From Megaleporinus macrocephalus (taxonomy: Eukaryota > Chordata > Actinopteri > Characiformes > Anostomidae), in the NCBI GenBank assembly GCA_021613375.1, contig CM038720.1, forward strand, positions 13,671,962-13,735,961: a stretch of DNA of 64,000 nt, read 5' to 3'. This document shows positions 51,803-56,635 of this stretch, piece after piece. The notes under the pieces were generated by a model. The model saw only the letters and a program-made list of their open reading frames with translations, did not search any database and was not told where the DNA came from. Position numbers and translations under genes: made by a program. The stretch's first letter is position 1. Each line of letters begins with the position of its first letter.

Positions 51803-51875
51803 CTTGAGATCTCGGTGCACCACACCCATTTGGTGGCAGTGAAGCACCGCCTCCAGGATCTGCTGGATGCAATGA
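51803..51875 (-). CDS. camk2b: camk2b exon 6B: alternative catalytic-loop exon, alpha/beta-type version
   Basis: A 73-bp exon that completes Ser and then encodes [18 protein letters not shown] followed by VHRDLK. As I recall the family, this equals the usual vertebrate alpha and beta exon. Acceptor gtttgcatgcag/T, with an interrupted, weak pyrimidine tract; donor AAG/gtgagt, stronger than that of exon 6A. It lies 4.7 kb downstream of 6A and 8.9 kb upstream of exon 7. The residues that differ from 6A line the alpha-E helix (Gln/His, Glu/Asp, Ala/Ser, Leu/Ser, Cys/Ile) and the turn before HRD (MGV against HDI). The catalytic residues are the same. Confidence 0.95.
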
Positions 51876-51878
51876 CTG

Positions 51879-51884
51879 CATGCA
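51879..51884 (-). promoter_or_regulatory. TGCATG motif (RBFOX-type) in the 3' splice site of exon 6B
   Basis: On the sense strand the acceptor reads GTTTGCATGCAG/T, so TGCATG occupies -9 to -4. RBFOX sites upstream of or overlapping an acceptor usually repress the exon. Together with the site downstream of 6A, both would favour 6A. Motif seen; function inferred. Confidence 0.45.
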
Positions 51885-54800
51885 AACACCAGGGGGCATG
51901 TTAGTCTGAGCAGCGCTACATTCTCTCGTGCACAGGCACAGGCGAGGGAATGGGGGGGTAGCAATGGGGGCAGAACAAAAAGCTACTGTATATCTGCATG
52001 TTAACATTTTGACCTGTGTATCTTCCACACATGTACAAAAACACCCTACAATGTGTTTAGATTTCTGAAGGTGGATGTAAACAAAGTCATTCAAAGTGCT
52101 CTAATATGAAATGGTGCACTCTGCAGAAGCTCACTGATTTTGGTAATACAGTCAAAATGTCCACAACAAACATGTAACAACTTTATTCACTATCCTGGAG
52201 GACCAAACATGTGTCTTCTCTAGTCTTACATGTAATGAAGCTAATGGTAAAAAAAAGACACCAACAACAACAACAAAAAAACATTGTTACTGACCATTTA
52301 TGCATGCATATCATGGTCATGAATGGCTTTTTATTATCATAAGACGATTTCTCACTGCTTTGTCTCGTACTGTTACGCTATTACGCTGCAGATGCAGTAG
52401 AGGCTTCAGATGCTTGGTTACCATTGCAAATAGCTCTGAGAGGGTCTGTCTCTAGAGAATGGCATACTTGAATGACTTTGTTTACACCTTATGAGGTAAT
52501 TATGCAGATAAAAACACTTGGAAATCCTATTTAACATCTGAACCTCTATCAGAATTTAAAAGAAATGAGAAAAGAACAGTATAATATTGATATAATACAT
52601 GAATGTTGCACTTTAAAGGAGGAAACTGAGCTAGAGGAAAAAAGAGCACGCGAGGCGGATATGATAATGTTGGATTCACACCCTTACTCGTCAGCAGAGA
52701 GGCTTGTGAATTTAAAAATATCTGTTCTAATGTCTTCATGCAGTAGCCTAGTATTTGTTCTCTCCAAAAAACACCAGGTGGGAATGAATTTTTGCCCAGT
52801 TTCAGACAGCAGCTTTGATTTTAAACATAAACTTGTTGGCCGGAGGAACGCATGTGCAGGGTCTGATGCATCTGTCAAAAAGCAGAACCTACAAAGGCTC
52901 CGTTGCATTTTGGTGTGTATTGACACCCCTATACTGTACAGCTGACACAGGAAGCTCCCACTAACGCTATACCACTTAACAAAGAGTTCTCAAAAGGTGA
53001 GAATCTCATACAGCCACCCACAGAAAGACAGCGAGAGTGTGAGAAAGAGACAGAGAAAGAGAGAGGGAAATGAGGGGTCGACAGAAATAGAGTCCAAGAA
53101 AAAGAGACTGGGTGTGATTGGGACAGGAAAGGATCAAGATGTGAAGCAGAAGAGACGAGTGGTAGGAGGACAGAGATGGAGAGAGGTGGCCTTAGAGGAG
53201 GGAGAGAGAGAAAGAGAGAGAGCGAGAAAGAGAGAGAGAGAGAGTGGCAGAGCTGCTGAAACATGGTGTGTGGAAATAAGGGTATTATTAGAATATATGG
53301 ATGTCAAATAGCTGCTTCCTGTTGTGTTTGGATGGTTCTCGTACACCCCTGAACTCAACATTTCCTTCACTTTCCAACACAAACCTTGCACTTGATTGGC
53401 TGGAAAAGAGAATGTAATCCTATCAATAGTTGTGCTTGTTAGAAAACGTGTGTAGGGGGTTGTGTGTGCTAGTTTGTGCCAGGCTGCGAGGTTGGTTGGT
53501 CAGTTTGTGCGCTTATCGTAAATGGCTGTTACTGACCTGCTGGCCATCTCAGTGCTAAGCAGAGGTTCTCTCTGCTGTCGTGTTCAATAAAAGAAAGTTC
53601 TCTTTAAGTGCTATGTTTCACCTTCTTCGCCAAGACTTTACTTTGATTACTTTTTTCCTTGCTCCAGCTGGCTCGATTATTCAATAATGATTAGCTAACT
53701 AGCTGACATGAGCGTAGAATCTGGTCAAGAAGTCACAACTGAACTTGCCAATAGGCTGTAAGGACTTTTAGGTTCAAGCTAATGTTCAGAATCTTCTTCT
53801 TCAGGCTCAAAAATTAGGGTAGGATTTATATGATGCAATATCCAGTCTGGGTCATAATTGATGGTAAGAAGTAAGAAGAACTAGGCTGTTGCATTTGGCA
53901 CAGAGGGTATAAAAGGTGATACACGACAGAGGGTCATTTTTAGGAAGGCAACAATAAAAAATGAATGAAATTGTCTGTGAAAATCGATTGAATATCTGTT
54001 TTTGTTGGATGTTGAAAAATCAACTGTGCTTGGTAACAGACATTTCCCAGCCATTTAAAAGGTCAAATTATATGATATGAAAGGTATACCTGATATGACC
54101 AGGCACTTTAACCAAATAACCTCAGGTTGACCCAAAATAAGTTATGCCTGAGCGCATAATATACAAACCACACAGGATGTCAAGAGTCAAACAGCTGAAA
54201 CTGCGTGGTAAAGTTATATATGGAAACATTTCAAATTAAAAAAAAAACACAGTGTAAGCTGTGTCGTATAAGATGAGGTATCGTTTACGTGCCCAAAAGA
54301 CAAAATCTCTAAATCAACAGAATGATCAGTTACAGATCACCCATTACGCTAGGGAGACAAAATAAACAAAGAAATACACTTACTTGGGCTGTTCTATTTG
54401 TTTCAAAATGTGAATTTCCAAGAACTTAAAACTGATATAATACCAATCCTAGTGAGGAAATGAGGCAGCGTGGCAGGAGCGTTATGCGGACGGAGTGAGT
54501 CAGGCTGTGTAGGTGTGGGTTGCTGATTTAGACAGGGAGAGCGTTTGCGAGACACGGCAATAGTGTGAATCCTGGGCAAACACTGTGTAGCGTGTACACG
54601 GCTTGCTTATGACACCAGGAGAGCCTCTGAATTCCAGATCCATTAGTTTAGAAAGGACAGATAGATTGGGCTTCCCTGTGCCCTGTCAGCAATGCTACTT
54701 CACTGTACTATCAGATATCCTTCTGGTGAGTGAGGGACAGGGTGGTCTTGCTCTGACTTTTTTTCTTTCCATCGGCCTGATATCCGGCCAGGCCTGGCGC

Positions 54801-56530
54801 GCACGCTCACACGCTTGGCAGCTGGGTATGACCTGGCAGGGTTGGGTGATATTCATTGGTGATATTTAAATGTCTCAGTAGCAGGCTTGTCATAATCATA
54901 AAGTTTTAACAGAAGATTAACTGCCTGTGGTTTTTGTTAATTGTTTGCAGGTATTAAACCATTTTGCATTTGACGTGACAGAAGCTGTCATAGTACTGAA
55001 AATATAACAACTGCCGTTGCATTAACAACAGAGAATCAACAAACAAACACACAAGTCCTCTTTTATAATGTCTGTGATGCAAAGTCCTCACATGAAGCCT
55101 TTGACATCCTTAGTAATGTATCAATTCTAATGACGGTGTACTGATGGTGTTTGTTTGTGGAGTGGTTTATTTTCATAGAGAAGCAAGCTTGATAAGAGCT
55201 ACAAATATTTCTTTAAGAATTACCTGCATGACTATGAAGATAAGTTAATGATCTTATGAGAAATTACCTGTAATCTGTCGAATGTTTACCAAAATATAGC
55301 ATATTATATTGTATTGTGACATAAAATGATTCATTAGCTGATTAGATATCTTGCTTGCTAGCCATGAAAACCCATAATAAACATTACTCACTTCTCTTTA
55401 AAGGTGTTACAGCACCCATTAGAAAGATTTTTTCAAACATTTGGTTTCTTTGTAAGATTCATGACGTTACTCAATAAATGCATATTGTGCTTTATTTCAT
55501 CTATAAGCATTTGCCTCAACCCAACAGGTGAATTTCACATTGCTGTGGCATACGCAATAGGATTGAACAGCTAACAATCGTGGAAAATAACTGAGATGAG
55601 TTCAAATAATTGTGATTATGTAATAGTTGTGACAGGCCTACCAGGCTGATATTATTGTTTATGACCAAAAAATGCTGGTCACCAACAAACCTTTCCTTTA
55701 AAATTCCATGATTGCATTCTTCCAAGTCTTGCTTGTGGGCTTCCTTTATATTGTTAAACAAGTTGCTGATTAAGACTTCAACATAAATTAAAAACAGTGA
55801 TCGAGAATGTTGGCATCGTAAAATGTCCTTAAAACACCCAAGCCCTGTGGTGCAACTGGACAGTCCTTGTTAACATGTAAACTCATTAGAAGATGCCACT
55901 AAATCAGAGTGTGATGGAGCAGTATCACACATGCCAGGTATATTTACAAGGTTTTAGAGATTGTGCTGGCTAATGATAAATCACAACACAAGTAACATGG
56001 CACTTGCCCAGGTTTACTTCTATTTATGACTGTCAGCCGTTCAAGTGCAATCTACTGGTGGAAAGTTTACGAGGACCACCTGAATATACCACATGACTCG
56101 GTGAACAATAGCACCTGGCCCAGCCATTGTAGACTATGAAAAGTACACTTCAGTCAAGCACTCATTACTCAGAAAGAGCACTGTGGATGTGGACAGCCTC
56201 TATTCTACCAGCAAACTGGCACAGACAAAAAAAATTACATTGAATATCCAGTATATTTAAAAAAAAAGTCAATGAGGGGTAAAAGTCATGTTGTTCCATG
56301 ACAGACACAGGAAGAAGGAGAGCAAGGCAGAGAGAGAGAGAGAGCAGTAGGTTGGGTAGGTTGTTGTTTATGCAAGAAAACAAGATGCCTTAGAAGTTAG
56401 AAGAAGTAGCCAGCTGTCCCAGTGCATCATGTGCAGCTTAAAGTGCAGAAACAGGAACCAGAATCATCCAAACGGGTTAGACAGACAGACAGAAACAGAG
56501 ACAGGTCACTAATGCAGGCATCACAAGTCT

Positions 56531-56536
56531 CATGCA
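56531..56536 (-). promoter_or_regulatory. TGCATG motif (RBFOX-type) 27 nt downstream of exon 6A
   Basis: On the sense strand TGCATG occupies intron positions +27 to +32 after the exon 6A donor. Known biology of RBFOX proteins: sites just downstream of an exon usually promote its inclusion. Motif presence is directly visible; function is inferred. Confidence 0.45.
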
Positions 56537-56562
56537 GTGGCCAGTGCACTCGCCATACTGAC

Positions 56563-56635
56563 CTTCAGGTCCCTGTGCACTATGTCATGTTGGTGAATGT
56601 GACTGACACTGTCTAGAATCTGATGGATGCAGTGA
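56563..56635 (-). CDS. camk2b: camk2b exon 6A: alternative catalytic-loop exon, gamma-like version
   Basis: A 73-bp exon that completes AGT (Ser) and then encodes 24 residues, starting [18 protein letters not shown] and ending in the catalytic HRDLK. It has no stop. The acceptor follows a long strong pyrimidine tract (ttcgcag/T); the donor is AAG/gtcagt. From memory of the family it differs from the CAMK2G exon at only two residues (Glu to Asp, Asn to Ser). Against the second copy at 51.8 kb it matches 16 of 24 residues, although the rest of this gene is beta-type. It contains the catalytic Asp (beta Asp136). Splicing it together with exon 6B would shift the frame, so the two should be alternatives. 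Intact coding, splice sites and phase argue against a decayed duplicate. Confidence 0.88.

What the first reader, a model, noticed from the sequence alone, without database searches (positions are those of the whole stretch)
51803..56635. Two mutually exclusive versions of the CaMKII beta catalytic-loop exon
Seen: two 73-bp exons, 4.7 kb apart, both completing the same split Ser codon and both ending in intact HRDLK with GT donors and AG acceptors. They agree at 16 of 24 residues. The upstream copy ([18 protein letters not shown]...) looks like the CAMK2G exon; the downstream copy ([18 protein letters not shown]...) is the usual alpha/beta form. Worked out by hand: joining both exons shifts the frame and reads to a TGA in exon 7 (after ...GEVS); joining neither also reads to a TGA in exon 7 (after ...MQR). 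So only one copy at a time gives a kinase. This would let one beta gene make kinases with beta-type or gamma-type alpha-E helix and pre-HRD turn. I do not recall this being described for a vertebrate CaMKII. It also suggests that the ancestral gene may have had both exons, with paralogues keeping different ones.
Basis: partly seen in the sequence, partly recalled or inferred. Interest (0 to 1): 0.88.

Follow-up and report, generated by a model that had tools for sequence, protein, structure and literature searches.

The report
Switchable catalytic exon in CaMKII beta
A fish CaMKII beta gene carries two interchangeable versions of the exon that builds its catalytic loop, apparently a switch older than the split of the four vertebrate CaMKII genes, in a part of the kinase usually taken to be the same in all its splice forms.

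Summary
Confirmed. On the minus strand two intact 73-nt exons (6A 56563-56635, 6B 51803-51875) can each complete the CaMKII beta kinase; joining both, or neither, gives a stop in exon 7. The beta ohnolog on C24 has the same pair, and a delta gene on C7 has a delta-type then an alpha/beta-type copy. In an unrooted exon tree the downstream copies of beta1, beta2, delta1 and alpha group together (95/98); grouping the beta copies is rejected (AU p 0.0003). Best reading: one tandem exon duplication before the paralogues split; beta and delta kept both, gamma the upstream type, alpha the downstream type.

6A looks functional: 1 of 24 codons changed silently between beta ohnologs, 88 of 224 in eight other exons; 108 of 120 listed models carry 6A, and 8 equal-length pairs differ only there. 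The downstream acceptor shares 21 identical bases, with TGCATG, in beta1, beta2 and delta1.

A human CAMK2D tandem-exon event in the kinase domain is already published (PMC9741552); I found nothing on beta in the searches made. No RNA reads were available; the RBFOX step is inferred.

The parts
56563..56635 (-). Exon 6A (upstream copy, 'U'): split Ser + [24 protein letters not shown], gamma-like
   Evidence: acceptor cgcag, donor GTCAGT
51803..51875 (-). Exon 6B (downstream copy, 'D'): split Ser + [24 protein letters not shown], alpha/beta type
   Evidence: acceptor TGCATGCAG, donor GTGAGT
51876..51896 (-). 21-nt acceptor element CCCCCTGGTGTTTGCATGCAG, identical before the D exon of beta1, beta2 and delta1
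   Evidence: one exact site in each of these 3 loci; no other site with up to 4 mismatches in the 314 kb of loci held (8 loci, both strands; one locus has unread bases)
51879..51884 (-). TGCATG (RBFOX motif), starting 9 nt before exon 6B
   Evidence: TGCATG within 30 nt upstream at 3 of 50 exon starts checked, these being the three D exons of the two-copy genes
51876..51958 (-). Conserved intron block before 6B (beta1 vs beta2)
   Evidence: 91% over 171 aligned columns including the exon; 80-nt flank score 58.5, mismatched exon pairs maximum 8.0
51900..51904 (-). CTAAC, likely branch site of 6B; starts at -29 here, at -31 before D of beta2 and delta1
   Evidence: role inferred from consensus (recalled)
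56639..56685 (-). Long CU-rich tract before 6A (89% pyrimidine; 51% at 6B)
   Evidence: same contrast in beta2 (91 vs 55%) and delta1 (89 vs 57%)
60928..60992 (-). Exon 5 ([21 protein letters not shown] + AG of the split Ser)
42828..42930 (-). Exon 7 (PENLLLASK...DFG...), where both wrong joins meet a stop

Best explanation
The window holds camk2b with a pair of mutually exclusive, protein-coding versions of the exon for helix alpha-E, the pre-HRD turn and HRDLK. Each transcript takes 6A or 6B; because both are 73 nt, taking both or neither shifts the frame to an early stop, presumably removed by nonsense-mediated decay (inferred). The pair arose by a tandem exon duplication in the ancestral CaMKII gene before alpha, beta, gamma and delta separated. 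beta and delta keep both copies, gamma kept only the upstream type and alpha only the downstream type, so the alpha and gamma catalytic cores are in effect fixed splice forms. Likely control (inferred): 6B has a weak tract, a consensus branch site and donor, and a UGCAUG at -9 where RBFOX would block the acceptor and push the choice to 6A in RBFOX-rich cells.
For: Frames in beta1, beta2, delta1. Both copies, same order, in these three genes. Exon tree, unrooted, 9 copies: the 4 D copies against the 5 U copies 95/98; holding the four beta copies together AU p 0.0003, the two delta1 copies p 0.03. Tree without exon 6: beta+gamma 83/83, and alpha and delta share residues at columns 130 and 134, so beta keeps both while gamma keeps U, and delta keeps both while alpha keeps D. 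Silent changes beta1-beta2: 6A 1 of 24 codons, 6B 4 of 24, eight other exons 88 of 224; Fisher p 0.0002 and 0.04. Acceptor of D, beta1-delta1: 23 of 30 bases identical, five other exons 8-15. Protein search: 108 of 120 listed (7998 scored) carry a 6A form, gar and reedfish among them; 8 equal-length pairs from one species and one contig length differ at exactly 8 residues, all in exon 6. Tetrapod-like beta search: 10 of 120 carry a 6A form (7 squamates, 2 marsupials, 1 newt). Delta search: 52 of 120 carry the D type. RBFOX upstream sites cause skipping: PMC4541041, PMC3585155 (passages).
Against: No RNA reads were seen; the protein models are automatic annotation. The RBFOX step rests on a conserved motif; tissue and direction are untested, and beta1 6B also has a TGCATG 45 nt downstream, which would act the other way (not conserved in beta2 or delta1). 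The exon tree has 73 columns and no outgroup; fly is 22 of 24 to delta U but 21 of 24 to D, so which copy is older is open. No branch of the paralogue tree reaches the starred level. Gene conversion between paralogues could mimic the shared D copy. No placental beta model in the listed rows has 6A. Three other exons also change little between the beta ohnologs (4 of 19, 7 of 28, 11 of 41 silent), so the 6B excess constraint is weak. The gamma locus on C5 has unread bases between exons 5 and 7, so its exon 6 is unknown.
Confidence: 0.86

Rival explanations
1. 6A is a relic: an old duplicate exon still open by chance and hardly used.
For: No transcript evidence in hand; no listed placental beta model carries 6A.
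Against: 1 silent change in 24 codons between ohnologs against 88 of 224 in eight other exons; splice sites intact in beta1 and beta2; 108 listed models in which 18 of 25 positions never vary; one identical 25-residue form in 7 squamates and 2 marsupials.
Confidence: 0.04
2. Poison switch: the second copy serves mainly to make a frameshifted double-inclusion or double-skip message that lowers kinase output, not a second protein.
For: Both wrong joins hit stops in all three two-copy genes; silent-site constraint could reflect splicing signals.
Against: Each copy is a complete HRDLK-bearing segment conserved at protein level; models with either copy run full length; human CAMK2G has nearly the same segment in a solved kinase structure (2v7o).
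Confidence: 0.07
3. The shared D copy is later: beta and delta gained it after the paralogues split, by gene conversion or exon copying between genes.
For: D is identical in protein across alpha, beta1, beta2 and delta1, as conversion would also give; the shared 21-nt acceptor could lie inside a conversion tract.
Against: D copies differ at 10-16 of 73 bases between paralogues, so any conversion is old; order U then D is the same in all three genes; alpha, lacking U, has D; delta models with D run from a frog to monkeys.
Confidence: 0.08

Closest known systems
Human CAMK2D tandem duplicated exon substitution event (PMC9741552, Fig. 2A legend; passages, sections 10 and 12 read)
   Same: A CaMKII gene with two homologous exons in the kinase domain, with residues right next to the ATP site; fits the delta U/D pair found here
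   Different: In the text I read only delta is named and no exon number is given; no beta case, no paralogue-wide history, no acceptor element
FYN and CACNA1 family tandem exons sorted among paralogues (PMC9741552, section 12)
   Same: Ancestral exon pair; some paralogues keep both, others keep one each
   Different: Other gene families; CaMKII is not discussed in that section
C. elegans egl-15 exons 5A/5B (PMC3585155, passages)
   Same: Mutually exclusive exons; the paper says RBFOX proteins repress exon 5B through a UGCAUG in the upstream intron
   Different: Tested genetically in worms; here only the motif and its conservation are shown
CaMKII linker splicing (PMC9772828, passages)
   Same: Same gene family, regulated exons
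   Different: Concerns the variable linker; that paper takes the kinase domains as identical among CaMKII beta variants

Membership tests
CaMKII beta gene (camk2b) | Beta-type kinase and hub rather than alpha, gamma or delta | tested here: met
   beta-type KEAYGK; groups with human beta 81/84; hub pieces at 4962-6440 match human beta at 89.6-100%
Mutually exclusive tandem duplicated exons | Adjacent homologous exons of equal length and phase | tested here: met
   73 nt each, same split Ser, 16 of 24 residues shared
Mutually exclusive tandem duplicated exons | Only single inclusion keeps the frame | tested here: met
   in beta1, beta2, delta1
Mutually exclusive tandem duplicated exons | Transcripts with either copy but not both | not testable with these tools
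   Only annotated protein models: 8 equal-length pairs differing solely in exon 6
RBFOX-controlled exon | (U)GCAUG beside the alternative exon, conserved | tested here: met
   at -9 of D in 3 of 3 two-copy genes, none within 300 nt of alpha D
RBFOX-controlled exon | Inclusion changes with RBFOX level | not testable with these tools
   No RNA data
Same event as the human CAMK2D pair | Same exon position and shared descent | tested here: inconclusive
   Delta U/D pair at exon 6 in this genome and in tetrapod delta models; the text read gives no exon number

The most novel reading that the evidence does not exclude
Before the vertebrate genome doublings, the single CaMKII gene already toggled its catalytic core by an RBFOX-controlled exon switch. 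alpha and gamma are frozen outcomes of that switch, beta and delta still toggle in many vertebrates, and placental beta seems to have lost it, so the alpha-type and gamma-type CaMKII cores began as splice forms of one gene.
Probability: 0.45. Interest if true: 0.85.

Novelty: new member of a known kind. Interest (0 to 1): 0.66.

Why it matters
CaMKII splice diversity is usually placed in the linker; one recent paper argues that the kinase domains cannot explain differences between beta variants because they are identical (PMC9772828, passage). Here the kinase core itself has two forms from one gene, with models from reedfish to marsupials for beta and from a frog to monkeys for delta, besides the fish delta pair read here. 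It gives a testable origin for the alpha/beta-like and gamma-like cores, and a natural pair differing at 8 residues for testing what helix alpha-E and the pre-HRD turn do to CaMKII activity, substrate choice and inhibitor response.

Tried and rejected
Chance match or pseudo-exon: rejected. A switch private to this gene: rejected (C24 and C7 pairs). Steric exclusion by exon closeness: unlikely, the gap is 4,687 nt here, 7,938 in beta2 and 2,140 in delta1. Conserved pairing elements between introns: blastn between the beta introns gave only the exons with their flanks, a 53-nt block near exon 7 that looks like a repeat (recalled), and a low-complexity hit. Relics of lost copies in alpha, gamma (C14) and delta2: no tblastn hit above noise. 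Absence of 6A in placental beta is not claimed: the database is clustered at 90% identity and shows 120 rows. Of the 12 listed fish models with 6B, 10 have a listed 6A partner of the same species and contig length; 8 of these pairs are of equal length, 2 are not and were not compared residue by residue; 2 (Neoarius, Salminus) have no listed partner. Likewise 2 delta pairs (Falco, Strix) were of unequal length. Literature: nine searches on CaMKII and one on RBFOX; listings are capped and I saw titles and starts of abstracts; none showed a CaMKII beta catalytic-exon pair. Nine papers were opened, all in part. PMC4465641 and PMC7954323 do not hold the terms CAMK2, CaMKII or calmodulin-dependent in the main text; PMC5740500 says CAMK2D has four clusters of mutually exclusive exons (passage); PMC13196872 concerns CAMK2D exon 14 (passages); PMC4317164 concerns RBFOX downstream sites (passages). 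Structure prediction was not used, because human CAMK2G with nearly the same segment is solved.
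Full report
What is there. The window (G000 C19:13671962-13735961) carries most of a camk2b gene on its minus strand; its first two exons lie outside the window. 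Between exon 5 (60928-60992) and exon 7 (42828-42930) are two 73-nt exons: 6A at 56563-56635 and 6B at 51803-51875. Both start with the second base of a split serine codon and end in HRDLK, with AG acceptors and GT donors. They share 16 of 24 residues.

Other CaMKII genes in the same genome. Searching with a kinase piece and reading about 241 kb of loci gave seven genes: C19 and C24 (beta), C7 and C23 (delta), C14 and C5 (gamma), C16 (alpha). Beta, gamma and delta names rest on residues shared with human chains; alpha rests on recalled residues. C24 has the same pair in the same order, [25 protein letters not shown] then [26 protein letters not shown]7 has a delta-type copy ([25 protein letters not shown]) then the alpha/beta-type copy, residue for residue. 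C23 and C14 show only the upstream type, C16 only the downstream type. In C5 exon 6 could not be read: unread bases lie between exons 5 and 7. C24 exons 3 to 5 are open too. A whole-genome DNA search found 6A at C19 and C24, and 6B at C19, C24 and C16 plus a weaker hit on C9; it missed copies that tblastn had found, so it is a lower bound.

History. In an unrooted tree of nine exon-6 copies (73 columns) the four downstream copies form one side with support 95/98. Holding the four beta copies together costs 26.9 log units (AU p 0.0003), holding the two delta1 copies together 13.1 (p 0.03). So the copies are older than the split between these genes. A tree of the kinase without exon 6 (156 columns) puts beta with gamma at 83/83; alpha and delta share residues at columns 130 and 134; no branch reaches the starred level. 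The upstream copies of beta match gamma at 20-21 of 24 residues. Fly is 22 of 24 to the delta upstream type and 21 of 24 to the downstream type; worm is 19 and 16, so the upstream delta type may be the older form, but fly hardly decides. The simplest account is one tandem duplication in the ancestral gene; then in each pair one paralogue kept both (beta, delta) and the other kept one: gamma the upstream, alpha the downstream. delta2 then lost the downstream copy (inferred).

Is 6A alive? Between beta1 and beta2, 6A has 1 silent codon change in 24 and 6B has 4 in 24, against 88 in 224 over eight other exons (Fisher p 0.0002 and 0.04; single exons range from 4 of 19 to 13 of 20). The protein search (7998 scored, 120 listed) gave 108 models with a 6A form and 12 with 6B. 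They come from ray-finned fish and include gar and reedfish. In 6A of these 108, 18 of 25 positions never vary. A search with a tetrapod-like beta carrying a gamma-type exon listed 120: 110 with the 6B form, nearly all from placental mammals by their names, and 10 with a 6A form: seven squamates and two marsupials with one identical 25-residue form, and a newt. A search with delta carrying the downstream exon listed 120: 52 with the downstream type (monkeys, birds, turtles, crocodile, squamates, a frog) and 68 with the delta type; paired delta models differ only in exon 6 in marmoset, crocodile, wall lizard and three turtles, while the capuchin pair has one further difference. The database is clustered and shows 120 rows, so absence in placental beta is a lead only. 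These models are automatic annotation; I saw no reads.

Control elements. The contrast between copies is the same in beta1, beta2 and delta1: the upstream exon has an 89-91% pyrimidine tract and donor GTCAGT or GTTAGT; the downstream exon has 51-57% pyrimidine, a CTAAC starting at -29 to -31 and donor GTGAGT. The last 21 intron bases before the downstream exon, CCCCCTGGTGTTTGCATGCAG, are identical in all three and found nowhere else in 314 kb of these loci with up to 4 mismatches; the whole genome could not be scanned for it, as that search did not complete. For beta1 against delta1 the last 30 bases agree at 23 there and at 8-15 for five other exons. Between beta1 and beta2 the 80-nt upstream flank scores 58.5 for 6B, 17.0 for 6A, and at most 5.5 for eight other exons; mismatched pairs reach at most 8.0. 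The element includes TGCATG; of 50 exon starts checked in six loci, only these three have TGCATG within 30 nt. The alpha exon, which has no partner to choose against, lacks it. Other TGCATG sites nearby are not conserved: 27 nt after 6A of beta1, 162 nt after U of delta1, and 45 nt after 6B of beta1, the last of which would favour 6B. RBFOX proteins bind (U)GCAUG and cause skipping from upstream sites (PMC4541041, passages; that paper also names camk2g1 as an rbfox1-dependent splicing target in zebrafish heart, exon not given in what I saw); in worm egl-15 they are said to repress one of two exclusive exons in this way (PMC3585155, passages). I therefore propose that RBFOX lowers the downstream exon and favours 6A in neurons and muscle: motif conservation is shown, action, direction and tissue are inferred. 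The exons are 2-8 kb apart, so crowding is unlikely to explain exclusion; frame loss and decay of wrong joins, plus the splice-site contrast, are the likely enforcers.

What changes in the protein. The eight differing residues lie in helix alpha-E and the turn before HRD (recalled structure); HRDLK is unchanged. Human CAMK2G with nearly the 6A segment is a solved kinase (2v7o), so 6A should give a folded enzyme. The effect on activity is unknown.

Known or new. Mutually exclusive tandem exons are a known kind, and a human CAMK2D event in the kinase domain is reported in PMC9741552 and fits the delta pair. I found no paper on the beta pair, on the sorting among the four CaMKII genes, or on the conserved acceptor in nine CaMKII searches of the held open-access library, whose listings I saw only in part; subscription papers, such as older ones on CaMKII gene organisation, are not held. 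Hence 'new member of a known kind', with above-average interest.

Noticed in passing
L024:7851-7991 and L024:9691-9795: The C5 gamma gene has a second, truncated copy of exon 7 (319 nt aligned, 99% identical, lacking the PENLLLASK part) about 1.8 kb away; a recent tandem copy or an assembly error.
   Followed up: partly
L030:4863-4961: A partial copy of camk2a exon 7 with following intron (82% identical over 1,286 aligned columns) lies about 0.5 Mb from camk2a on C16.
   Followed up: partly
33301-33411: A camk2b linker exon carries a run of about ten alanines not in the recalled human beta sequence; beta2 on C24 has a similar one.
   Followed up: no
43135-43187: A 53-nt intron block upstream of exon 7 is 83% alike in beta1 and beta2; it resembles a widespread fish repeat (recalled), so may not be regulatory.
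   Followed up: partly
G000 C9:39696958-39697017 (not fetched): An 80% match to exon 6B over 60 nt inside a long open kinase frame that is not one of the seven CaMKII genes listed here.
   Followed up: no
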